A stretch of DNA of 24,173 bases from a virus: positions 1 through 24,173 of IMG/VR virus record IMGVR_UViG_3300028573_000054. The stretch is one strand, 5' to 3'. Within the stretch, counting starts at the first letter, position 1. Each line of letters begins with the position of its first letter. The translations under genes and the position numbers were made by a program. The notes beneath the pieces are model-generated. The model was given only the letters and a program-made list of their open reading frames with translations, ran no database searches and was not told the DNA's origin. Of the stretch, positions 3,502-23,768 are shown piece after piece.

Positions 3502-3926
3502 ATATCCAGACTCTGCCACGGCGAGAGGAGATTGAGCGCTTGCAGACAGCTGCCGCGAAGTTACCGCAGGTGGAATTGCCCACGAAGCACCACTTTGCTG
3601 ACGGTATGTATTGCCGCGAGCTGTTTCGTCCCAAGGACACGCTCATCGTCGGGAAAGTGCATCGACGCGAGCACTTCTACATCGTGCTCTCCGGGGAAGT
3701 CACAGTCGTAGGGGATGGCAAGCGCGAGCGCATCAAAGCCCCGCGCATACTGTTGAGCGCTCCCGGCACAAAACGCGCTGTATATGCCCACGAGGACTCG
3801 ATCTGCATCACGATCCATCGCACTGATGAGACCGATTTGGATGCCATCGAGCGTGAGTTGGTTGAGCCTGATGAGTCCGCGTTGTTTGACGCCCATAACC
3901 GCCTGAAGACGGAGTTTCTCAAATGA
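3498..3926 (+). CDS. Cupin-fold protein in the tail operon
   Basis: A 142-residue protein with one cupin-like core: HRREHFYIVLSGEVTVV around residues 55-71 matches the first cupin motif (H...EHF...G) and the later APGTKRAVYAHEDS matches the second. The remaining His residues could bind metal. Both ends overlap neighbours by ATGA (3498 and 3923), so it is co-translated with virion genes. Similar cupin-like genes are seen in tail regions of some podoviruses; whether it is an enzyme, an assembly factor or a virion part is not known. The C-terminal third is acidic and helical. Confidence 0.75.
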   Translation: MNIQTLPRREEIERLQTAAAKLPQVELPTKHHFADGMYCRELFRPKDTLIVGKVHRREHFYIVLSGEVTVVGDGKRERIKAPRILLSAPGTKRAVYAHEDSICITIHRTDETDLDAIERELVEPDESALFDAHNRLKTEFLK

Positions 3927-4756
3927 GTTGGGTTGCCGTAGGCGTCGCCGGCGCCTCCCTCTTAGGTGGTATCCTGGGATCTAACGCCTCCGAGAAGGCC
4001 TCCCAGGAACAGGCAGCAGCGGCGGCGCGCGCGCAACAGATCTCGCTCGGTGAGTTCAACACGATCACCCAGCAAGAGTCCCCCTTTCTAGGGGCCGGCT
4101 ATGGGGCGTTATCGCAAGAGAACTACCTCCTGGGGATCGGCGCTCCGGGGACCGCGACCAATTCCATGGCGGGCACGCCCGGGACTGCCGCCTCGAGTAC
4201 CGCGGGGGGGTATGGGAGTCTCGTACAGCCCTTCAATCTGAGCGACTGGCAGCAGCTCTCACCAGCCTACAACTTCCAGAAACAGCAAGGACAGCAGTCG
4301 GTACTGAACGGCGCGGCCGCAGGGCAGGGCGCGATGTCCGGAGCGGCTCTCAAGGATCTCACCGACTACAACCAGGCCGAAGCCAGTACGAGCTTCAACA
4401 ACGCGTTCAATCAGTACCAGACCCAGCAGGGAAACATTTTCAGCCGTCTGTCGGGGATTGCGAATCTCGGGCAGTCTGCTGCATCCAATACGGCGCAATC
4501 AGGTGTTGCCCTCGCAGGACAGGCGGCGCAGAGCGCGACGAACATCGGCACGGCGCAGGCGGCTGGCACTATCGGCTCCGCCAATGCGATCAGTGGGGGG
4601 ATTAACTCGGCTGCTCCATGGTTAGCTTATGGCGGCGGCGGGAGCGGAGGGTATTCCGGGGGCTCGTACAATTCTGTCATGAACGGCAATGGCACCTACG
4701 GTGCCCCCAACAGTTACGGCAGCGGTTATACGCTCTCTGACTATGGAGCGGACTGA
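3923..4756 (+). CDS. Probable DNA ejection (internal virion) protein, P22 gp7-like
   Basis: A 277-residue protein. It begins with a hydrophobic Gly/Ala stretch (VAVGVAGASLLGGILGS), followed by an Ala/Gln-rich helical region (EKASQEQAAAAARAQQ) and repeated small-residue segments with many Gln/Asn. The C-terminus is Gly/Ser/Tyr rich (YGGGGSGGYSGGSYNS). This composition, size and position match P22-group ejection proteins that are carried in the capsid and enter the host envelope ahead of the DNA. Assignment rests on composition and gene order, not on a catalytic motif. TGATG overlap with the next gene. Confidence 0.65.
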   Translation: MSWVAVGVAGASLLGGILGSNASEKASQEQAAAAARAQQISLGEFNTITQQESPFLGAGYGALSQENYLLGIGAPGTATNSMAGTPGTAASSTAGGYGSLVQPFNLSDWQQLSPAYNFQKQQGQQSVLNGAAAGQGAMSGAALKDLTDYNQAEASTSFNNAFNQYQTQQGNIFSRLSGIANLGQSAASNTAQSGVALAGQAAQSATNIGTAQAAGTIGSANAISGGINSAAPWLAYGGGGSGGYSGGSYNSVMNGNGTYGAPNSYGSGYTLSDYGAD

Positions 4757-6228
4757 TGCCCGAGATGACTCCCATCGGCAATACGTTCAACGCCCCCAAC
4801 CCCATGACAGGGATCAATACCCTGTCGGGCATTGTGGGTATACAACAGAAGCAGCAGGCCCTGCATACCGGTCAGTACCAGCAGGCCACTGCGCAGGCTG
4901 AGAGTGAACAGGCACAGCAGAAGAATCAGGAGCTACAGAAGGTCTCGGCTCTCATGCAGAGCGTTCATGGAGGTGGTTACCGCAAAGCAGACGGATCGCT
5001 CGATCGTCAGAGGTTCGCCGACGATGTCTCCACCGTGGCACCGGCCTATGGTCAGGCAATCGCCACAAGCGCATTGGCTCAGGCGAACGAAGTCGTTCAG
5101 AACCAGAAGGCTAAACAGGACCTCACTGATTCCGCCCGCGCTTCACTTGGCTCGACCTTGACCGCTCTAGCCAAAGATCCCAACACGCGTCGCGATGATG
5201 TGATCAACGGCTATACACAATGGATGCAGGATCACAAGGATGATCCGGCCGCCTTCCGGGTAGGTCTCGCTCAGGCAGCGCTGCTGCCGCAGAATGACGC
5301 GGACCCAAAATTCCGCGATATTCTAGGAAAATATGCCGCAACCTTGACGGGGCAGCCTACAACTGCGCCTTCCACGGTGGAAACTCCCGGACAGATCCAG
5401 CCCGGGCAGACATCGAGCATCACCGGGGAATTCAGTCCCGCAGGTTCCCCGATTGCCAAGCCTCCCACGCAGACTACCAACGCGGCGGGCCAGATCGTCA
5501 ACCGCAATCCACAGACGGGGGCGCTATCGGCCGTGCCGGCAGGAGGATCTGCGAGAGCCGGCAACGGGACACCAGGAGGCATCAATCCGACCACCGCACA
5601 GGCCCAGACCGCCCAGGGAGCGGCCAAGGATGCTGCGGCCAACATTGAGGACGCACGAGCGATCGGAGATCACGCTCCGGCGGTACGGAACGTTAACGAT
5701 CAACTCCTGCAGCTTTCCAGCCAAACTGGCACTGGTCCAGGCTCACAAACGTTACAGAAGCTGGCAGCGGTAGTAGGACTGCCTTCCGGAGCACGTTATC
5801 AGGAGATAACCGCCTATCTAGATCGCCAGGCAGCGCTATCCGCCCGTCAAATGGGCGTGCCCAATACTAATGCGGGACTAGCTGCCTCCCAAAGCGCCAC
5901 AGGTACTACCGAGTACACCCCGAAAGCATTGCAGGAGAAAGTGAAGTTTGCCGATGCCCTGAACTCCGGCGCGATGGCCTATCGACAGGGGTTGGATAAG
6001 GCGGTCGGTACCGGAGCGGCGCCGGATGTGGGCAAATACCAAGCGTTTCGCTCGGCATGGTCGCAGAACTTCGATCCCGACGTGTTCCGGGCCGAAGACG
6101 CGATCCGGCGCGGCGATAAATCTGAACTCAACACTTTGAGGCAGCGGCTCGGGCCGGATGGAATGAAGGCGCTCGCTCAGAAGCGAGCGAATCTGAACCT
6201 GCTCACACAGGGTCAAATTCCGCAATGA
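4756..6228 (+). CDS. Probable internal virion / ejection protein (gp20 position)
   Basis: A 490-residue protein with no recognisable catalytic motif. Residues ~30-120 are Gln/Ala-rich helix (QQKQQALHTGQYQQATAQAE), residues ~195-290 are a low-complexity Pro/Thr/Gly linker, and the rest is helical. It lies between the gp7-like and gp16-position genes with one-base and four-base overlaps, the place of P22 gp20 in the ejection set. Function is inferred from order and composition. It could instead be a scaffold-like or tail-tube component. Confidence 0.6.
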   Translation: MPEMTPIGNTFNAPNPMTGINTLSGIVGIQQKQQALHTGQYQQATAQAESEQAQQKNQELQKVSALMQSVHGGGYRKADGSLDRQRFADDVSTVAPAYGQAIATSALAQANEVVQNQKAKQDLTDSARASLGSTLTALAKDPNTRRDDVINGYTQWMQDHKDDPAAFRVGLAQAALLPQNDADPKFRDILGKYAATLTGQPTTAPSTVETPGQIQPGQTSSITGEFSPAGSPIAKPPTQTTNAAGQIVNRNPQTGALSAVPAGGSARAGNGTPGGINPTTAQAQTAQGAAKDAAANIEDARAIGDHAPAVRNVNDQLLQLSSQTGTGPGSQTLQKLAAVVGLPSGARYQEITAYLDRQAALSARQMGVPNTNAGLAASQSATGTTEYTPKALQEKVKFADALNSGAMAYRQGLDKAVGTGAAPDVGKYQAFRSAWSQNFDPDVFRAEDAIRRGDKSELNTLRQRLGPDGMKALAQKRANLNLLTQGQIPQ

Positions 6229-8255
6229 GCGCCGATCCCGTCTATGATTTTTTCTCTTCTGGAGGAGATGCGACATCAGCACCTTCGGGAGATCCAACGC
6301 ACGACTTTTTCTCCACGGGGAAAATCCCTGGAGAGACAGCGTCTCCGCCGACCACCTACGACGCCAATTTGTTCCGCAAACGAGTAGGACGCGACCCTGA
6401 GCCTGCAGAACTAGCCAATTTTAAGGCAATGAAGGGAGTCGGTTGGGCCGGTGATCCGACTCAGGGGAAGTTCACAGTGGGTCAGGCAGCCATCGGAGGA
6501 GCTGAGGATGCCCTATCGTTGGGAACCTCAATTCCCGCGAGTATTACCGCAGCACCCGCCTATTTGGCCGGACTGACCGGAATAGGCGGCACGGACTCAC
6601 TCTCTGCCGCGCGCGCCACGCGCAACGCTATGACCTATCAGCCACGCTCGGAAGCCGGACAAGCCGGTATGGAGACTATCGGTCAGATCAAACCGGGAGA
6701 GATCGTACCGCGCTTGCTGGATGTCTCAGGACACCCTCAGGCTGCCGATACCGTGCGCGATGTGACGGAGCGGGTGGGCGATGTGGCACCCCTCGCAGGA
6801 GAGGTAGCGGCGGGGTTTCCAGGCTCGCGCGCCGTTGGCCGGGGTGCGGGACGCGCGATCTCTCCGATGGTAGATCCAGAATCGGTGCCGCTGACTGCAC
6901 AGGAAGTGCTCACGCAAGCGGCGGTGAATTCCCCCCAATCGATGGGCGCTGCTGCTGCTGCCGCGGATCTCTCCAAAGCTAGTCCAGAACTCAAGGCTCG
7001 CATTGTCCGAGAGGCCCAACAAACCGGTGGAGCGGTCAATGCCGAGACGATGGGGCGTCATATTGAAGCCGATACACTGCCGGTAAAAATTCAACTCACG
7101 CCAGGGCAGGCGATGCAGGACCCCGCAGTCATCTCGAGCGAGATGAATAACCGCGCGCGCACTCCCGGACTGCCTGATCTGCTCAATAATCAGAACAAGG
7201 CGCTGGGCGCTAACATACAAGCAATCCGGGATCAAGTTGGGCCCGATGTGTTTTCGACGAATGCCGCAGAGCATGGCGATACGTTGATACAGGCTTACAA
7301 AGATAAGGCGAAAATCGCCAACGACGATATCTCCGCGAAGTATCAGGCTCTAAAAGATGCCAACGGCGGCAGGTTCCCTGTCGATGCGAAGGGTCTATTG
7401 GATAACGCCAGTAAAGAGCTACATCAGGAATTGTTGTTCGATCACGCTCCAAAGGCTGTGATGTCAACGTTGGGACGGCTTGCTGACAGCGGAAACATGA
7501 CATTTGAGAACTTTGAATCTCTGCGTACCAATCTCGCTCGTATACAGCGTTCCCCAACAGCGGACGGAAATGAAAAGGCAGCGGCCGGTATCATTCGCAG
7601 TTCAATGGAGCAACTGCCGCTTGCTCCTGGCGCAGCCAGTCTGAAGCCATTGGCGGATACAGCTCGTGCGGCTGCCAAGGCGCAATTTGATGCGGTAAAA
7701 GTAGATCCCGCCTATAACGCCGCCGTGACCGACTCGGTTGCGCCTGACGACTTCGTAAGAAAATACGTCATCGGCGGGAAGCGTGATGACGTTGCAACCA
7801 TGCGTCAGAATTTGGCGGATAACCCCACGGCGACTCAGACGATGGGCGTAGCGGCTCTGGATCACTTGAGGGATCAGGCAGGAGTGGGACCTGGCGGCAG
7901 CGGCAACTTCTCACAAGCGGCTTATAACAAATATCTGCAGGCGTTGCAGCCGAAGCTTGGGGCGCTCGTGGATCCACGCACAGAAGAGACGTTGGAGAAG
8001 CTAGGTAACGTCGCTCGTTATACCCAGGCCCAGCCCAAGGGATCGTACGTCAATAATTCAAACACGTTGGTTGGAGCGCTTGGCGAGCACGCTCTCAATG
8101 CTGGAGAGAATTTGCTGAATGCGAAGACCGGTGTCGGTGGAACGCTGCTACGCAAGGCAATCGATAAGCGCGCTGCGGATAAAGCGGCGAAAGAGACGAT
8201 GACCCCCTACGGCGGAATGGGTCGTCTCTCAGACTTTGGGAAGCCGCCGCAGTGA
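6225..8255 (+). CDS. Large internal virion / ejection protein (gp16 position)
   Basis: A 676-residue protein, third of the ejection set and close in size to P22 gp16 (~609 aa). The N-terminus carries two copies of a short tag, DPVYDFFSSG (residues 4-13) and DPTHDFFSTG (23-32). After a hydrophobic Gly/Ala region (~85-125, SLGTSIPASITAAPAYLAG) the rest is long Ala-rich helix. The C-terminus contains KETMTPYGGMGRL, a motif repeated at the end of the minus-strand gene just downstream. No transglycosylase active-site motif is evident. Starts in an ATGA overlap. Confidence 0.65.
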   Translation: MSADPVYDFFSSGGDATSAPSGDPTHDFFSTGKIPGETASPPTTYDANLFRKRVGRDPEPAELANFKAMKGVGWAGDPTQGKFTVGQAAIGGAEDALSLGTSIPASITAAPAYLAGLTGIGGTDSLSAARATRNAMTYQPRSEAGQAGMETIGQIKPGEIVPRLLDVSGHPQAADTVRDVTERVGDVAPLAGEVAAGFPGSRAVGRGAGRAISPMVDPESVPLTAQEVLTQAAVNSPQSMGAAAAAADLSKASPELKARIVREAQQTGGAVNAETMGRHIEADTLPVKIQLTPGQAMQDPAVISSEMNNRARTPGLPDLLNNQNKALGANIQAIRDQVGPDVFSTNAAEHGDTLIQAYKDKAKIANDDISAKYQALKDANGGRFPVDAKGLLDNASKELHQELLFDHAPKAVMSTLGRLADSGNMTFENFESLRTNLARIQRSPTADGNEKAAAGIIRSSMEQLPLAPGAASLKPLADTARAAAKAQFDAVKVDPAYNAAVTDSVAPDDFVRKYVIGGKRDDVATMRQNLADNPTATQTMGVAALDHLRDQAGVGPGGSGNFSQAAYNKYLQALQPKLGALVDPRTEETLEKLGNVARYTQAQPKGSYVNNSNTLVGALGEHALNAGENLLNAKTGVGGTLLRKAIDKRAADKAAKETMTPYGGMGRLSDFGKPPQ

Positions 8256-8302
8256 AATCGCTACAAACGATCCATGCCACCGTAAGGCGTCATGACTTCT
8301 TT
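8190..8302 (+). repeat. Inverted repeat encoding the same peptide motif on opposite strands
   Basis: Left arm 8190-8228 (plus-strand codons of KETMTPYGGMGRL), right arm 8264-8302 (minus-strand codons of KEVMTPYGGMDRL), 35 bases apart. The arms match at 28 of 39 bases and the codon phases coincide. Of the 11 mismatches, 7 are at third positions, and 11 of 13 amino acids are identical. Could form an imperfect hairpin in RNA, but the substitution pattern fits protein-level constraint better. Confidence 0.8.
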
Positions 8303-8404
8303 GGTCAGCCGAGCGGTTTCGCGCTGCCTGCGCCAAGCCTGGAAGCTCTTCCAGATGAAGATCGCGCAGGCCGTACCGACGAGGATTTTAAATATGGTGG
8401 TCAT
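8261..8404 (-). CDS. Micro-membrane protein antisense to the late operon, with MTPYGGM tail
   Basis: A 47-residue protein: one N-terminal membrane segment (IFKILVGTACAIFIW), a basic stretch (RRQRETARL), and a C-terminal KEVMTPYGGMDRL that repeats the tail of the ejection protein at 6225-8255. About three quarters of its codons end in G or C, clearly more than in the opposite-strand frame (about half). The start at 8404 is uncertain: no clear Shine-Dalgarno precedes it, and in-frame ATGs at 8428 and 8482 would give longer versions. It lies on the opposite strand in the only sizeable gap of the late operon. An alternative is a remnant of an inverted, divergent copy of the ejection gene 3' end. 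Confidence 0.55.
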   Translation of the reverse strand: MTTIFKILVGTACAIFIWKSFQAWRRQRETARLTKEVMTPYGGMDRL

Positions 8405-8460
8405 AGCAACCACTGTAATCCCGCCCATCACTGTACGCGCAACTGGATGGAGGGGATTCT

Positions 8461-10365
8461 GTGACCGCCACCTTCCTGGCACCGTACCCGGTCCAGAAGT
8501 TTTTTGACAATAACGGGGTTCCCCTTGCCTTTGGATTGCTGACGACCTACGCGGCTGGGACCAATACGCCGATTGCGACCTACGTTGATTCGACCGGGAT
8601 CACGACGAACACCAATCCGATCACGCTCAATTTCCGGGGGGAGTGTTCTCTTTGGCTCCTTCCAAACGTCGCCTACAAGCTCGCGCTCACCGATTCGGCC
8701 GGTAACGTCATTCCGGGGTGGCCGGTAGACAACATCGTCAACGCCGCCCTGATCAGCCTCTACGGCGGGGTCGATACCGGGACGGCGAACAACTATATCC
8801 TGAATTTCGCCTCTCCCGTTCCTCCGAACACCAACGGCCAGGTGGTCTACTGGTTGCCGTCGAACTCCAATACCGGCCCCTCGACCATCAATGTGAATGG
8901 AGGAGGGATCCAGCCCATCCTCAATCCCAATGGGACGCCTCTGGGGGCGAATCAGATTCTTTCCGGTCAGTTTGTCTCCATCATCGAGATCAACGGCATC
9001 TGGCAGCTCTACGGCGGTTCTGGCGTAGGTGTGAACGTCGGGACATTCGGGACCGAAGTACCGTTGCCGTCAGCCACGACGACCGATCTGGGGAGTGTAT
9101 CGGGGCACAATGTCCAGATCACTGGCACGACCACAATCACCTCTTTCGGGGCTTCCGCTCAGGTGGTGGCGCCGATCTACATCGGACGATTCACCGGCAC
9201 GCTCACCCTTACCAATTCCGCGAGCCTGATGTTGCCCGGTGGAAATAACATCAGTACAGCCAATGGGGATTCCTTCATCGCGGAGTACCTGGGCTCAAGC
9301 ATCTGGAAGGTTCTTTTCTATCAGTATGCCGCCGCCACCAGTGCGACCTCGGCGGTCAAAGCCTCCGATACTCAGCGCATATCCACCACGACACTCACGG
9401 CCGATCCTGATCTGCAACTGACCTTGCTCACGGGTCAATACGAGTACGAGCTCTTCATGCTCTTTGACTCGGTCACCGCCGCCGCCGGCTTCAAGTTCCA
9501 GTCGAACGGAACCGCTATCGATAGTCGCGGGACTTCCCCAGCCGGCGCCACGGGTCTGGTGAACGCCGCCGCCTACGGCCCCAAGCTCGAGTCCTTTGTG
9601 GGCGCGACATTGACCTACGCGACGGTAGGGACGGCGGCCAATAGTAATCAGGTCTCCTACAAAGGTTCGCTCCTGGTCAGTACGCCAGGGACTTTCGGAA
9701 TTCAGTGGGCCCAAGGCACTAGCACCGCGAGCAATACGACCTTGCGGGCGGGCTCCTATCTGACGGCCACTCTGCTGGCTCAGAAGACAAGCTCTAACGC
9801 CACGATCCGCATCTATACGACGCCTGGAACGGCGACGGAAACCATTCCGGTGGGTGTCACCAGCTGCACCATCGAGGTATTCGGCGGTCCGGCGGGCGGG
9901 GGCACGGGTTTCAACCTGGGCGGCGGTAGCAATTCCGCCGGCGGCGGCGGTGGCTCCGGTGCGTATTCCCGCACAACGGTCTCGGTCTCAGGTGCCGGGG
10001 GGCTGACCATGCAATACACCGTAGGTGCTGCTGGAGTGGCGTTGAACGCGGGTGGTCTGTCGCAAGTGGTCTCGGGCACCTTCTCCCTCACAACCGTGCT
10101 CGCCAATGGAGGTTCACCCGGGGTGGCGTCAACCTCGACCCATCCGGGCGCAGGAGGCGCGGGCGGGACTGCCTCGGGTGGGACGGTCAATACGAGCGGT
10201 AATGCGGGCACCAATGGTACACGCGGGTCCCCGGGAGTGGCAGGTCAAGGCGGCCCGGGTGTGCCCGGCATCAACTTCGGAGGCGCGTCCGGCGGGTTAG
10301 GGGGCACTGTGGGTGCCGCTCAATCCGGTACCGGTCCGGGCGCCATTGTCTTCTCCTACACCTAA
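8461..10365 (+). CDS. Tail fibre with Gly-rich receptor-binding tip
   Basis: A 634-residue protein. Residues 1-92 are a virion-anchor domain shared with the spike at 10371. Then come beta modules: ~195-290 (TTTDLGSVSG, TGTTTITSFG, IWKVLFYQ) and ~300-440 (TQRISTTTLTADPDLQLTL to YLTATLLAQ), types seen in many phage tail proteins. Residues ~447-634 are a glycine-rich domain (repeated GG, GGGGGSG, GTRGSPG) ending in GAIVFSYT, like Gly-rich phage adhesin tips. The GTG start is supported by GGAGGGG just upstream. Likely binds a host surface receptor. Confidence 0.8.
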   Translation: MTATFLAPYPVQKFFDNNGVPLAFGLLTTYAAGTNTPIATYVDSTGITTNTNPITLNFRGECSLWLLPNVAYKLALTDSAGNVIPGWPVDNIVNAALISLYGGVDTGTANNYILNFASPVPPNTNGQVVYWLPSNSNTGPSTINVNGGGIQPILNPNGTPLGANQILSGQFVSIIEINGIWQLYGGSGVGVNVGTFGTEVPLPSATTTDLGSVSGHNVQITGTTTITSFGASAQVVAPIYIGRFTGTLTLTNSASLMLPGGNNISTANGDSFIAEYLGSSIWKVLFYQYAAATSATSAVKASDTQRISTTTLTADPDLQLTLLTGQYEYELFMLFDSVTAAAGFKFQSNGTAIDSRGTSPAGATGLVNAAAYGPKLESFVGATLTYATVGTAANSNQVSYKGSLLVSTPGTFGIQWAQGTSTASNTTLRAGSYLTATLLAQKTSSNATIRIYTTPGTATETIPVGVTSCTIEVFGGPAGGGTGFNLGGGSNSAGGGGGSGAYSRTTVSVSGAGGLTMQYTVGAAGVALNAGGLSQVVSGTFSLTTVLANGGSPGVASTSTHPGAGGAGGTASGGTVNTSGNAGTNGTRGSPGVAGQGGPGVPGINFGGASGGLGGTVGAAQSGTGPGAIVFSYT

Positions 10366-10370
10366 TAATC

Positions 10371-12764
10371 ATGACAGCCCAACTCGCACCCACACCGGTT
10401 TTCAAGGCCTTCGACAACAACGGCTTGCCATTGGCATTTGGCATTCTCACGACCTATCAAGCGGGGACCCTACTAAAGCAGGCAACCTACGTTGATTCTA
10501 CCCAGACAACTCAGAATACCAATCCGATCATCCTGAATTTCAGGGGAGAGTGTGAGTTGTGGCTCGACCCGACACTCACCTATAAGTTCGCGCTCACAGA
10601 TCAGTTTGGCAATACTATCCCGGGTTGGCCGGTCGATGGCATCCAAGGTGGCTTCACACCGTCCGCGATTGCGGCATCCCTCATTCCGACACCGACCGAT
10701 ACATGGAATCTAGGCAGCCCCACCAATAGCTGGGCGCAGCTCTACCTGGGTGCCAATGCAGCGCCAGTATATGACTCGGTCACAGGTAACATCGGATACT
10801 ACGCGCGCACCGCCGCAGAGATCGCAGCCGGGGTGACGCCGGTGAACTATTCGTATGCGCCGGGGGATATCCGTAGATACGGTACGAATACAGCGCCTGG
10901 CACCACTGACATGACATCAGCCTTCCAGGCGGCAGCATCGTGCAATGCTGTCGTGGTCTTGAAGGCTGACACATACCTTGTGGCCAATGTCACTTTGACG
11001 CAATCTGTTTTATTTCAGGGTCAGGGTTTTGCAACCGTTATTCTGGACAAGGCCACGGCTCTGACTCACGGTACTTACTCGCAGAACATCTTTACAGCAA
11101 CTGCGTCTATAGACTCTATCGTTTTCAGGGATCTAACTTTGGATGGAGCGTGCGCAGGCCCTAGCAATGCGCTCGATAGTAGCGAAATAGCGATGGTGAA
11201 GATCACCAATACTTCCAATGTTACTTTCGAGCGAGTTAAGCTGACCCGCTATTGCGGGGCATTTGGAGGAACAGTCAAGGCTATCAGCGCCTCATTCTGG
11301 GAGGCGATCGTAGTTCAGAACGCTGCCAGGACCATTTTTCGCGACTGTCTATTTACAAACAACCACTATGAGATGGTGCTGATATGGAATGCGCCTGGCA
11401 GCAACAACGAAGTACTTATAGACGGTTGTTCTGAGATAAACACGGGTACCCCTGACTCGCACACATCCTTTGACTTAAATGGCGGGCACAACACCGTCGT
11501 CAATTGCCTATGGAGTAACACCGGACCTGACAGCCAGTTGAATTGCCAGGTCGCGCAAAGTATACGGGTCGCGAACTGTACTTTTCTAAGTATGCAGCCT
11601 GGAACAGCGGCACAATGCAACATAGGACAGGACACGTTCCCATTCAATTCTGATGTGTTGATAGAAAATAACTACTTCCTGAACGCTAACTCAGCGGCTA
11701 TTTCAGTCGGTTCAGGTAGCTCGATCATCATCCGCGGCAATGTCATAGACACTCCGGTTAACTACGGAATAAAACTGACCTCTGGTGTAACAAGTTTCGG
11801 TAATTATTCAATAGAATATCCGACCTCGGAAGGGTGGCCAGCTGCGGTATCAAGCGGTAGTAATTCTATTGTTATAGAGAATAATGTTATCAACGCTGTA
11901 TCGAACTCTGGCTCATTATCCAGCGGAATATTCCTGCATACGGTAACCGCCAATAGCGGTTACTGGTTCAAGGATGTGCTGATCAGCGGCAATACCGTCA
12001 CAGCGGGAGCGGCCCCCAATAACACTTTCTGGGGTCTGCGCCTGGATGACTTACAGGATCTCGTCATCCGAGACAATTGGCTTCAGTACACCCAGAATGG
12101 GATTAATTTTGAGACGCTCGTTCAGAACGCCAGGATCGAGGGAAACACCTTCAACGGTGTACCTCCGTCCACTAATAATGACATCCTCTGGAATGGCGCT
12201 TTCACCTCCAGCAACGTCAAGATCCGTAATAATCAGTTCAACCAGTATCCGGTTGGGCAAAACGGCACTGTCAACGTCTTCGCTGGGTCTGTATCTGGCT
12301 TGGATATCATCGACAATGTTGGTATTCATCCGACACTGCCTGTGCAGGGACCTGCGAATACCGCCTATGTGGCTTGGCAGACCAAAGGTGGCATTAGGAC
12401 TACGACAGCCGCGCCAAGCAGTGGAGACTACGCGCTGAACGATGTTGTTAAAAACGTTCCGACTGCAGCACAGCCAGGCGAGTACCTCTGCATCACCCCT
12501 GGTTCTTTCGGATCGGCTCTGACCTGCACTGCAAATGGGACCTTGGGCAACAATTTCTTCACCTGTAGCGCGGTAGCGCAGTTACATGTGGGTCAACACT
12601 TTACTGTTGCTGGCGCAGGAGTGGCCGCGGCTAACCTGACTTGTACTTGCGTCTATATAACCGGCTCAACTTTCTACGTCGATCAGGTGATATCCACATC
12701 TGTCAGTGGAGCCGCAATGACATTGGTCAATCCTGCCTTCGTTAAGTCTGCGAACTATACATGA
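10371..12764 (+). CDS. Tailspike, pectate-lyase-like right-handed beta-helix
   Basis: A 797-residue protein. Residues 1-93 are the same anchor domain as in the fibre (shared FDNNG-PLAFG-LTTY, ATYVDST, LNFRGEC, NTIPGWPVD). From ~165 (GDIRRYGTN-APGTTDMTSAFQAAA) it reads as a pectate-lyase-3/beta-helix entry followed by many short turns rich in Asn, such as IENNYF, IIRGNVID, IENNVIN, ISGNTV, IRDNWL, IEGNTF and IRNNQF, typical of spikes that bind or cleave surface polysaccharide. The last ~100 residues form a Thr/Val-rich beta domain. Base composition drops sharply in the helix (74 G+C of 180 at 11761-11940), a sign of horizontal exchange. Catalytic residues cannot be assigned by eye. Confidence 0.85.
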   Translation: MTAQLAPTPVFKAFDNNGLPLAFGILTTYQAGTLLKQATYVDSTQTTQNTNPIILNFRGECELWLDPTLTYKFALTDQFGNTIPGWPVDGIQGGFTPSAIAASLIPTPTDTWNLGSPTNSWAQLYLGANAAPVYDSVTGNIGYYARTAAEIAAGVTPVNYSYAPGDIRRYGTNTAPGTTDMTSAFQAAASCNAVVVLKADTYLVANVTLTQSVLFQGQGFATVILDKATALTHGTYSQNIFTATASIDSIVFRDLTLDGACAGPSNALDSSEIAMVKITNTSNVTFERVKLTRYCGAFGGTVKAISASFWEAIVVQNAARTIFRDCLFTNNHYEMVLIWNAPGSNNEVLIDGCSEINTGTPDSHTSFDLNGGHNTVVNCLWSNTGPDSQLNCQVAQSIRVANCTFLSMQPGTAAQCNIGQDTFPFNSDVLIENNYFLNANSAAISVGSGSSIIIRGNVIDTPVNYGIKLTSGVTSFGNYSIEYPTSEGWPAAVSSGSNSIVIENNVINAVSNSGSLSSGIFLHTVTANSGYWFKDVLISGNTVTAGAAPNNTFWGLRLDDLQDLVIRDNWLQYTQNGINFETLVQNARIEGNTFNGVPPSTNNDILWNGAFTSSNVKIRNNQFNQYPVGQNGTVNVFAGSVSGLDIIDNVGIHPTLPVQGPANTAYVAWQTKGGIRTTTAAPSSGDYALNDVVKNVPTAAQPGEYLCITPGSFGSALTCTANGTLGNNFFTCSAVAQLHVGQHFTVAGAGVAAANLTCTCVYITGSTFYVDQVISTSVSGAAMTLVNPAFVKSANYT

Positions 12765-12793
12765 GCCAACCTCAACATTCCTGGCTACCCTGA
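12761..12793 (+). other. Ten-codon micro-ORF bridging spike and lysis genes
   Basis: ATG overlaps the spike stop (ATGA). The ten-residue frame (MSQPQHSWLP) ends in a TGA that overlaps the ATG of the next gene (TGATG). The next gene has no clear ribosome binding site, so this could be a re-initiation bridge. It may also be chance. Confidence 0.3.
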
Positions 12794-13095
12794 TGGACGA
12801 CTCTGGACAATTCGACGTGCGCAGGTTACGCAGGTCTCCTAACTTCGGGACGTGGCTGACGATGATCGCCATGGGCGCGGGGCTCGTTGCGGCCTGGGCA
12901 ACCAATGGCAATCGCCTGGCGAACGTCGAGCAGCAGCAGACCGAGAATAAGGCCGAGGTGCAGAGAATGGAGGCGCACATCTCCTCCGATGACTCGCAAA
13001 TCGCAGTTCTCGCCACACGGCTTCAGGTGATTATCGAACAACTGGCAGAAGCCAATGCGAAGCTCGATAGGTTGGAAGAGGAGCGGCGTAAGTGA
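12793..13095 (+). CDS. Membrane-anchored coiled-coil lysis-cassette protein (i-spanin-like topology)
   Basis: A 100-residue protein: a basic N-terminus, one membrane segment (~residues 20-37, WLTMIAMGAGLVAAWAT), then a coiled coil to the end (ANVEQQQTENKAEVQRMEA, QLAEANAKLDRLEEERRK). It sits directly before the endolysin. N-in/C-out with a periplasmic coiled coil is the layout of Rz-type inner-membrane spanins. I saw no lipobox-bearing outer-membrane partner embedded in or after it, so the spanin role is an inference; a holin regulator is possible. Confidence 0.65.
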   Translation: MDDSGQFDVRRLRRSPNFGTWLTMIAMGAGLVAAWATNGNRLANVEQQQTENKAEVQRMEAHISSDDSQIAVLATRLQVIIEQLAEANAKLDRLEEERRK

Positions 13096-13535
13096 CCATG
13101 CTCTCGCCCCTCGGCCGCGCCATGATTCAGCACTTCGAGGATTACGCTTCTAAAGCGTATCGCAAATTCCCCAATGAGCCGTGGACCGCAGGGTGGGGAC
13201 ACACTGGCCCGGATGTCACGGAGAACACGGTCTGCACACCCGATGAGGCGGAAGAGTGGTTCAGCCAGGATATTCGGCATGCGGAGAGCGCGGTCGTCGC
13301 TTACACCGGAGTCCTGAGTCAGCATCAGTTCGATGCTTTGGTGTCCTTTGCATACAACGAGGGGATCGGAGCGTTCGCGCAATCCACGCTCCTGAGACTG
13401 CTCAATGCCCGCCAGATATCTCAGGCGGCGGATGAATTTTTGAAGTGGGACAACGTGGCTGGGAAGCCGAGCGCCGGTCTGCTGCGTCGTAGAACACTCG
13501 AGCGAGCTCTCTTTTTGGACGGGATCACTCTATGA
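13092..13535 (+). CDS. Endolysin, GH24 (T4/P22-type) lysozyme
   Basis: A 147-residue muramidase predicted to cleave the glycan backbone of peptidoglycan at lysis. The catalytic Glu is E16 (MIQHFE) and the substrate-loop signature is WTAGWGHTG (T32, H37). Later motifs QFDALVSFAYNEGIGAF, LRLLN and GLLRRRTLERALFL are family-typical. The position that is Asp in T4 lysozyme (E+9) reads Lys here (Y-R-K-F-P-N-E-P-W-T) with a one-residue shift, so the usual E-D-T triad is not evident. There is no signal peptide, so export would depend on the holin. ATGA-type overlaps on both sides. Confidence 0.88.
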   Translation: MTMLSPLGRAMIQHFEDYASKAYRKFPNEPWTAGWGHTGPDVTENTVCTPDEAEEWFSQDIRHAESAVVAYTGVLSQHQFDALVSFAYNEGIGAFAQSTLLRLLNARQISQAADEFLKWDNVAGKPSAGLLRRRTLERALFLDGITL

Positions 13536-14047
13536 ATTTCGGTCAAACCGCTAAATCCGTACTTGCCACGGTAGCTCCTCTCCTGGGAACAGCTCTCGGC
13601 GGCCCATTCGGCGGACTCGCCGGCAGCCTGCTCTCAAAAGCCCTCGGTACGAGCGATCCCAAGGCCATGGAGGCGGCGATCACCTCGACCGACCCAGACA
13701 TCCTCCTGAAGCTGAAACAGGCGGATAACGACTTCCAGGCGCAAATGAAGACCCTGGAGATCAGCGAGGAGAAGCTGTCCTTCGAAGATACGGCGAACGC
13801 TCGGGCCCGGGAAGTGGCGGTCAAGGACACCACGCCACGCAATCTCGCCTACCTCATCATCGGCTTCACAGGTCTGTGCATCGCCGCAACTCTTGCGGGT
13901 TGGACCAAGGTGGACTCAGCGCTCGCTGGTACGCTGATCGGCTACCTCGTAGCCGAGTGCCGCTCGACGCTAACTTATTACTTTGGATCCAGTCAGGGGA
14001 GTAGGGATAAAGATCAGGCGCTGGCGGATATCGCCAAACAAGCCTGA
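13532..14047 (+). CDS. Holin, three-TM (GTA holin-like)
   Basis: A 171-residue protein with an N-terminal hydrophobic Gly/Ala-rich segment (LATVAPLLGTALGGPFGGLA), a charged central helix (KLKQADNDFQAQMKTLE) and two C-terminal membrane segments (LAYLIIGFTGLCIAATLAGW and ALAGTLIGYLVAECRSTLTYYFG). This fits the 3TM holin family found beside endolysins and in gene-transfer-agent lysis. It overlaps the endolysin by ATGA. It ends 11 bases from the convergent minus-strand cluster and I see no hairpin terminator in that gap. Confidence 0.75.
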   Translation: MNFGQTAKSVLATVAPLLGTALGGPFGGLAGSLLSKALGTSDPKAMEAAITSTDPDILLKLKQADNDFQAQMKTLEISEEKLSFEDTANARAREVAVKDTTPRNLAYLIIGFTGLCIAATLAGWTKVDSALAGTLIGYLVAECRSTLTYYFGSSQGSRDKDQALADIAKQA

Positions 14048-22751: not shown

Positions 22752-23768
22752 TCAAGCCTTTTTGCGTTTCCGGCTCGAAGCCGTGTGCGACATCTGTGCA
22801 ACCTTGCGAGCCGCTTCCACCGCATTTGAGGGCGCGAGGTGCGCGTACCGAAGCACCATGCGATAGGACTTCCAGTCTCCGAGCACCATCAATTCCGGTA
22901 GCGTCACGCCGTTCTGGACAGCCCAGGACGCCCCCGTGTGCCGCAGGTCGTGCCACCGTAGCCCCGGCAGCCCAGCCCGCTGCGACGCCTTCCTGAACGC
23001 CGCCGTATTGAAGTTGTCGATCGGCTTCTTCTCGTACTGGAATACGTGCAGACCTTGAGGATGGGAGGCCCGGCATTCCTTCAGGACTGCTATAGACTCC
23101 TCGGTGAGAGGGAAGCTGAACGTCCGACCCGCCTTCATCTGCGAGCTCGGCACCCAGGCCTTGCGGCCCTTTATGTCCACTCGATCCCATGTCAGGCTGC
23201 TCTGCGCCCGCATCCGTAGTAGCGTAAACACCGCGAAACGCGCGGCCCGCTCGAGGTGCCGCGGCAGCTCCCGCCGCAACCGCTGGAACTCCTCTGGCGT
23301 CAGGAAGCGCGGCTCGGCCTCCGGCTCGCCGTACATCGGAATCGGTGGGCAGGACTCCAGGTAACGCCAGGCGACGCATTTCTTTAACACCGCGCGCAAC
23401 GTGCGCATCGCCCGGTCTACCGTCGAGTGGCTCCAGCCTTCGGCGAGTCCATCCTTGCGTAACTCCTCGATCACATCCGGATCGGCCACCGATGAGACGG
23501 GATACTCGTCGATCTTCGGTGAGAGCCACGCGAGGATCTCGCGATCGCGTTTGCGGGACTTTCTGGAGTCTGTCAGCCATCGCTGCTGAGCCTCTTTCCA
23601 CGGAACGGCACCACGATCTCCGAGCTTGTCGCGCCGCCAGAGCCTTTGCTGGAGGACGGTTTCGAATTCCTCAGCGGCTTTTCGATCCGCCGTGCCCGTT
23701 GACTGGCGAGTCTTGCGGCCAATGCGGACCCACCAGTGGGGGCTCCCGGGGCGTCGGTAGAGTGGCAT
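22752..23768 (-). CDS. int: Tyrosine-type site-specific integrase
   Basis: A 338-residue recombinase. The catalytic residues are R185 (LLRMRAQSSLTW), K212 (MKAGRTF), H273-x-x-R276 (HDLRHTG), W299 in the His/Trp position (LGDWKS) and the nucleophile Y308 (LRYAHL). Residues ~1-55 form an arm-binding-type region and ~60-145 the core-binding SAM-like helices. It ends next to the tRNA-Val fragment, the expected target site. It overlaps the HTH gene by 196 bases. Confidence 0.93.
   Translation of the reverse strand: MPLYRRPGSPHWWVRIGRKTRQSTGTADRKAAEEFETVLQQRLWRRDKLGDRGAVPWKEAQQRWLTDSRKSRKRDREILAWLSPKIDEYPVSSVADPDVIEELRKDGLAEGWSHSTVDRAMRTLRAVLKKCVAWRYLESCPPIPMYGEPEAEPRFLTPEEFQRLRRELPRHLERAARFAVFTLLRMRAQSSLTWDRVDIKGRKAWVPSSQMKAGRTFSFPLTEESIAVLKECRASHPQGLHVFQYEKKPIDNFNTAAFRKASQRAGLPGLRWHDLRHTGASWAVQNGVTLPELMVLGDWKSYRMVLRYAHLAPSNAVEAARKVAQMSHTASSRKRKKA

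What the first reader, a model, noticed from the sequence alone, without database searches (positions are those of the whole stretch)
8190..8302. Same 13-residue C-terminal motif on two opposite-strand genes, with synonymous divergence
The ejection protein (plus strand) contains KETMTPYGGMGRL near its C-terminus. The short membrane protein on the minus strand immediately downstream ends in KEVMTPYGGMDRL. Codons align in phase; 28 of 39 bases match, 7 of the 11 mismatches are at third positions, and 11 of 13 amino acids are identical. A hairpin kept for RNA reasons would not be expected to vary at codon third positions in both arms. This suggests the peptide itself is selected in both proteins, for example as a virion-incorporation or partner-binding tag, or that an old inverted copy stayed functional.
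Basis: partly seen in the sequence, partly recalled or inferred. Interest (0 to 1): 0.72.

Follow-up and report, generated by a model that had tools for sequence, protein, structure and literature searches.

The report
Membrane microprotein copying phage ejection-protein tail
A soil-type short-tailed phage carries, next to the gene for the protein that helps push its DNA into a cell, a tiny membrane protein that ends in the same short conserved peptide; three related phages do too, which suggests a membrane-tethered decoy that blocks DNA entry by competing phages, an idea that has not been tested.

Summary
In detail: KETMTPYGGMGRL (8190-8228, +) in a gp16-like ejection protein (E-protein) and KEVMTPYGGMDRL (8264-8302, -) ending a 47-73 aa one-TM ORF, 11/13 aa and 28/39 nt. 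Nucleotide identity is what independent codon choice gives (28.3 expected), so the peptide, not the DNA, is shared. The E-protein peptide is a family-wide C-terminal linear motif (..[AS]LxPGAG[LITV]..), in 70 of 78 distinct E-protein tails. Scanning ~16,600 ORFs of related contigs with a profile of it gave four clear hits, all TM microproteins abutting the E gene: window and L001 (opposite strand) and L067, L068 (same strand). Window and L001 match their own E-protein best of 78; L067/L068 match the family consensus. In 16 of 45 relatives with a gap there (0.65 expected) an opposite-strand TM ORF abuts the E gene tail-to-tail, where P22 has sieA, an inner-membrane superinfection-exclusion gene whose escape mutations lie in the C-terminal regions of gp16/gp20. 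Best reading: a sieA-position exclusion microprotein that shows a decoy of the E-protein tail at the inner membrane. Motif sharing is well supported; the function is inferred. The window ORF has no Shine-Dalgarno or codon-bias support.

The parts
6225..8255 (+). gp16-like ejection protein (E-protein), 676 aa
   Evidence: Last of the gp7/gp20/gp16-type gene trio before the tail-fibre genes; relatives in PAE2, AH02, EBPR podovirus 1 and many IMG/VR contigs
8190..8228 (+). C-terminal linear motif KETMTPYGGMGRL of the E-protein
   Evidence: Core motif in 70 of 78 distinct E-protein tails
8261..8482 (-). TM microprotein ORF (likely start ATG 8404, 47 aa, or ATG 8428, 55 aa; longest from GTG 8482, 73 aa)
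   Evidence: no Shine-Dalgarno and neutral codon use
8351..8404 (-). predicted transmembrane segment, followed by 4 K/R in 10 residues (C-terminus predicted cytoplasmic)
   Evidence: Hydropathy
8264..8302 (-). copy of the E-protein motif, KEVMTPYGGMDRL, at the microprotein's C-terminus
   Evidence: own E-protein is the best match of 78
3923..4756 (+). gp7-like ejection protein
   Evidence: phrog_598 'DNA ejection', E = 4e-25
4756..6228 (+). gp20-like ejection protein, by gene order
   Evidence: Synteny; C-terminal part 86-73% identical in relatives L035-L038
8461..10365 (+). tail-fibre-type gene bounding the locus (place of P22 gene 9)
   Evidence: gene order
22752..23768 (-). tyrosine integrase: the window phage is temperate
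   Evidence: PF00589, E = 4.8e-18

Best explanation
The E-protein (gp16-like) ends in a conserved short linear motif that docks on a partner when the DNA-injection conduit assembles at or across the inner membrane. The adjoining microprotein is a single-pass membrane protein that shows a copy of this motif on the cytoplasmic face of the inner membrane, in the gene position and orientation of P22 sieA. It most likely works in superinfection exclusion: the tethered motif competes for the docking site of incoming E-proteins and stops injection by relatives. Shown: the motif, its conservation, its exclusive presence in the E-protein and this microprotein, the locus position. Inferred: expression, membrane insertion, topology, binding partner, exclusion.
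For: Core motif in 70 of 78 distinct E-protein tails. Profile scan of ~16,600 ORFs: hits at 22.0, 19.1, 18.3 and 16.4 bits are all TM microproteins abutting the E gene; next best 12.1. In whole contigs the motif is otherwise found only in the E-protein. Window and L001 copies match their own E-protein best of 78. Synonymous sites saturated while the peptide is kept. Opposite-strand TM ORFs abut the E gene in 16 of 45 relatives with a gap, 0.65 expected; about half have a clear Shine-Dalgarno. P22 sieA lies at the same place and strand, 22 nt after gene 16; [quoted passage not shown] The C-terminal domain of T7 gp16 is presumed to reach the cytoplasm and its last residues are needed for infectivity (PMC8954989). 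Window phage is temperate; integrase in 5/18 contigs with the TM microprotein against 3/52 without, p = 0.02.
Against: No sequence homology to SieA or to any PHROG or PADLOC family. The window and L001 ORFs have no Shine-Dalgarno and no codon-bias signal, and the plus strand is open too. Only 4 of ~80 relatives carry the motif in a microprotein; the window's nearest relative, L018, has a TM microprotein without it. L067/L068 copies do not match their own E-protein and are co-oriented with late genes. L001 (41 kb) has no tyrosine integrase, so lysogen expression is not general. No partner of the motif is known.
Confidence: 0.5

Rival explanations
1. Virion-incorporation or conduit part: the shared motif is a packaging or assembly tag, and the microprotein is packaged with the E-proteins and ejected to form part of the inner-membrane channel.
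For: In L067 the microprotein starts in a GTGA overlap with the E stop and has good codon bias, so it is probably co-expressed late with the E-protein; one motif in two proteins fits one shared binding site.
Against: In the window and L001 the gene is on the strand opposite the late operon; most relatives with the same E-protein motif lack any such microprotein, so it is dispensable for virion function.
Confidence: 0.17
2. Inverted duplication or gene conversion: the end of the E gene was copied in reverse into the neighbouring ORF and has no function of its own.
For: In window and L001 the arms are inverted, close and in phase, and match the own E-protein best; L001 nucleotide identity is slightly above independent codons (P = 0.03).
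Against: Window identity is just that of independent codons; L067 and L068 are not inverted and do not match their own E-protein best; a decayed copy would not keep 11/13 aa with saturated synonymous sites.
Confidence: 0.1
3. RNA feature: the inverted pair is a hairpin (for example a terminator between convergent genes) and the peptide match is a by-product.
For: Both inverted loci fold better than dinucleotide shuffles, z = -3.4 and -4.95.
Against: Synonymous recodings of the same peptides fold as well or better in 84% (window) and 13% (L001) of cases; no T run follows; L067/L068 have the peptide without an inverted repeat.
Confidence: 0.04
4. Other membrane role, such as a small lysis or membrane-recruitment protein that borrows the motif to hold E-protein or a host factor at the membrane during assembly.
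For: Some distant relatives have plus-strand TM microproteins of holin-like look after the E gene.
Against: The window has a separate lysis region (spanin-like and lysozyme-like genes, 12793-14047); opposite-strand position; no holin family match.
Confidence: 0.12
5. The window ORF is not translated and the match is coincidental.
For: No Shine-Dalgarno, neutral codon use.
Against: Score 63 against a maximum of 37 in shuffles; three further cases at the same place.
Confidence: 0.07

Closest known systems
P22 SieA superinfection exclusion protein (phrog_7745)
   Same: Membrane protein gene on the opposite strand directly after the gp16-type ejection gene and before the tail-fibre/tailspike gene; target region of SieA is the C-terminal part of gp16/gp20 (PMC10883804)
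   Different: SieA is 164 aa with several membrane segments and no copy of a gp16 peptide (best local match to gp16 or gp20 is at shuffle level); the microprotein is 47-73 aa, one TM, no homology
HK97 gp15 and other small prophage membrane proteins that block DNA injection
   Same: Prophage-encoded proteins that block DNA injection; [quoted passage not shown]
   Different: Long-tailed phages; no copy of the target's own peptide has been described there, to my knowledge
P22/Sf6 gp16 and T7 gp16 ejection proteins
   Same: Gene order, mostly helical, ejected conduit protein; T7 gp16 has C-terminal residues needed for infectivity (PMC8954989)
   Different: The PGAG-type motif was not recognised by eye in P22 gp16; profile similarity to P22 gp16 is marginal (hhalign E = 0.029)
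EBPR podovirus 1 gp24 (L017)
   Same: Annotated opposite-strand 54-aa TM protein tail-to-tail with the E gene
   Different: No motif copy; basic tail only

Membership tests
P22 SieA family | Gene between homologues of P22 genes 16 and 9 | tested here: met
   Microprotein 8261-8482 lies between the E gene (ends 8255) and the tail-fibre gene (starts 8461)
P22 SieA family | Opposite strand, tail-to-tail with gene 16 | tested here: met
   Stop 6 nt after the E stop; P22 sieA 22 nt after
P22 SieA family | Sequence homology to SieA | tested here: not met
   No PHROG match for the microprotein while P22 SieA hits phrog_7745 at 9e-109
P22 SieA family | About 160 aa, polytopic inner-membrane protein | tested here: not met
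   47-73 aa, one predicted TM
P22 SieA family | Blocks DNA injection; escape by E-protein changes | not testable with these tools
   Needs infection experiments
gp16-type ejection proteins (for 6225-8255) | Third gene of the 7-20-16 block after gp10-type tail genes | tested here: met
   phrog_578 head closure Hc3 upstream, phrog_598 DNA ejection two genes before
gp16-type ejection proteins (for 6225-8255) | Profile similarity to P22 gp16 | tested here: inconclusive
   hhalign E = 0.029 over 89 columns, collinear
Holins / lysis proteins | Match to a lysis family | tested here: not met
   No PHROG or Pfam lysis match for the microprotein

The most novel reading that the evidence does not exclude
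A new mechanism of superinfection exclusion: a membrane-anchored decoy that carries the phage's own ejection-protein docking peptide and blocks conduit assembly of related phages by competition, with specificity set by a ~12-residue motif that tracks the own E-protein (window, L001) or a wider family consensus (L067, L068).
Probability: 0.4. Interest if true: 0.82.

Novelty: new variant of a known kind. Interest (0 to 1): 0.62.

Why it matters
How SieA-type membrane proteins stop DNA injection is unknown. If the microprotein is a decoy of the E-protein tail, the docking peptide and its binding site become testable at once: one short motif, two proteins, natural variants with matched and unmatched motifs. 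It also gives gp16-like ejection proteins of a large environmental phage group a defined C-terminal functional motif, and marks a locus of diverse, mostly unannotated TM microproteins behind the E gene.

Tried and rejected
Genome scan for prophages with E-protein profiles: no relative in 84,980 genomes with the patterns used. tblastn of the microprotein in phages (best E = 0.9, a TM-type match) and plasmids: nothing meaningful. tblastn of the consensus motif alone in phages: no match. SieA against P22 gp16/gp20 for a similar peptide copy: none above shuffles. Fold search of the E-protein model (mean pLDDT 77.6) in PDB: nothing; in viral predictions only uncultured-phage homologues among the best hits. 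Selection for the RNA hairpin: not supported. DNA-level duplication signal: none in the window, weak in L001. DNA pattern for KExMTPYGG in IMG/VR: only the L018 contig besides the window.

Full report
What is there. The window is a virus record of 24,173 bases from a temperate, P22-like short-tailed phage: head-closure gene (phrog_578), short tail-fibre protein, gp7-like ejection protein (phrog_598), a gp20-like and a gp16-like gene, two tail-fibre-type genes, a lysis region and a tyrosine integrase. The finding sits at the end of the gp16-like ejection gene (E gene, 6225-8255). On the opposite strand, 6 nt behind the E stop, ends an ORF with one hydrophobic segment, a basic stretch and KEVMTPYGGMDRL as its last residues. 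The E-protein has KETMTPYGGMGRL eight residues before its end.

The peptide is a family-wide motif of the E-protein. Seven of eight scans of IMG/VR with E-protein or gp20 sequences and alignments (the eighth was a DNA pattern) gave about 80 non-redundant relatives. Of 78 distinct E-protein tails, 70 have the core motif near the end, typically (A/S)LxPGAG(L/I/T/V)xxLxDIGK. The window and its nearest relative L018 have the variant MTPYGG(M/L). In an AlphaFold model (46 sequences, mean pLDDT 77.6) the motif follows the last helix (639-658) as an extended stretch with block pLDDT of 83-89.

The motif recurs in a second protein, always in the same place. A 12-column profile of the E-protein motif was run over all ORFs of the fetched loci and contigs (16,624 and 16,583 ORFs). 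Four non-E ORFs stand out at 22.0, 19.1, 18.3 and 16.4 bits, the next at 12.1. All four are TM microproteins abutting the E gene: L001 (minus, MHIPFGIVVLISLLLIGPDLYRKWKNDRYVRRATEPGAGLATIRKR), window (minus), L067 (plus, GTGA overlap with the E stop...DEVYEILKPGAGLEYQEPAKRRAPLRVVK) and L068 (plus...SAEEKSLAPYAGLDYKEPK; its hydrophobic segment is short and its start codon uncertain). Outside the E-protein and these microproteins no further instance was found in the whole contigs scanned. On an E-protein tree the four need at least three changes of state; L067 and L068 are sisters, window and L001 are not. The TM parts of the four are not alike beyond composition.

Peptide, not DNA. In the window 28/39 nt are identical; with both peptides fixed and codons drawn from the phage's own usage 28.3 +/- 1.7 are expected, and 3 of 9 informative codons agree against 3.2 expected. 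Synonymous sites are saturated. The inverted arms do fold as a hairpin, but synonymous recodings fold as well or better in 84% of cases for the window and 13% for L001, and the plus-strand cases have no inverted repeat. So neither a selected hairpin nor a recent inverted copy explains the finding.

Self-match. The window and L001 microprotein motifs match their own E-protein better than any of the other 77 tails; L067 and L068 rank their own E-protein 38th and 22nd and resemble the family consensus. Tracking of the own E-protein is therefore seen in two cases only.

The locus. Of 45 non-redundant relatives with a gap of 90 nt or more behind the E gene, 16 have an opposite-strand TM ORF ending within about 40 nt of the E stop; 0.65 are expected when the intergenic DNA is shuffled. 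They are unrelated in sequence (L122 and L135 excepted), eight have a Shine-Dalgarno-like site at the proper distance, and one is annotated in EBPR podovirus 1 (gp24). Cultured phage AH02 has an unannotated 23-codon TM ORF there (read by eye). P22 sieA lies at exactly this place and strand, 22 nt behind gene 16. [quoted passage not shown] Integrase is more frequent in contigs with the TM microprotein (5/18 against 3/52, p = 0.02), though contigs are incomplete and the groups are partly clades.

Mechanism. The best-supported reading is exclusion by mimicry: the E-protein tail docks on an unknown partner at or inside the inner membrane, and the microprotein shows the same peptide, tethered to the membrane with its C-terminus predicted cytoplasmic, to occupy that partner. 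Steps shown: motif conservation, sharing, position. Steps inferred: translation, membrane insertion, partner, exclusion. Weak points: the window and L001 ORFs lack a Shine-Dalgarno and codon bias, and the plus strand is also open across the gap; the nearest relative L018 has a TM microprotein without the motif; L001 shows no tyrosine integrase; L067/L068 are co-oriented with the late genes, which would fit late-infection exclusion or a virion role.

Membership. It works like a sieA locus by position and membrane character but fails the SieA family on homology, size and topology, so it is not filed as SieA. The E-protein is gp16-like by gene order; profile similarity to P22 gp16 is marginal. 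My searches of the open paper library found no description of an exclusion protein that copies an ejection-protein peptide; subscription papers were not covered.

Noticed in passing
window 8461-10365 and 10371-12764: Two tandem tail-fibre-type genes share a similar N-terminal adaptor domain (FDNNG.PLAFG.LTTY.AGT...LNFRGEC.LWL) but differ afterwards.
   Followed up: no
window 6225-6330; L016 1253-1360; L001 1523-1620; L012 3371-3530: The E-protein N-termini carry a repeated short motif (window DPVYDFFSSG / DPTHDFFSTG; L016 DPRTDFFASGG / DARTAFFASGG; L001 FDPDAYLAEK / FDPDAYLEMR): possibly a second linear motif at the other end of the protein.
   Followed up: no
L002, L003, L018, L023, L035, L069, L073, L074, L076, L107, L122, L135, L142, L017 behind the E gene: Diverse opposite-strand TM microproteins without the motif, tail-to-tail with the E gene; several with strong Shine-Dalgarno sites; candidate exclusion genes.
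   Followed up: partly
L215 901-3456; L005 4717-7314: These relatives of the E-protein have an N-terminal transglycosylase (SLT) region, absent from the window protein (for L215; L005 by eye).
   Followed up: partly
window 8252-8464 (+): A plus-strand 70-aa ORF starts in a GTGA overlap with the E stop and ends in a GTGA overlap with the fibre gene, antisense to the microprotein; similar gap-filling plus ORFs exist in L001 and L018. No coding signal, but not excluded.
   Followed up: partly
L118, L126, L130 directly behind the E gene (+): Plus-strand coiled-coil plus TM microproteins that look like small holins, in the distant branch of the family.
   Followed up: no
L221 6282-6353 (-), Pseudomonas phage AH02: Unannotated 23-codon TM ORF (MFFFYCCMMTVAFIGYLAFQNDR) tail-to-tail with the ejection gene of a cultured phage.
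   Followed up: no
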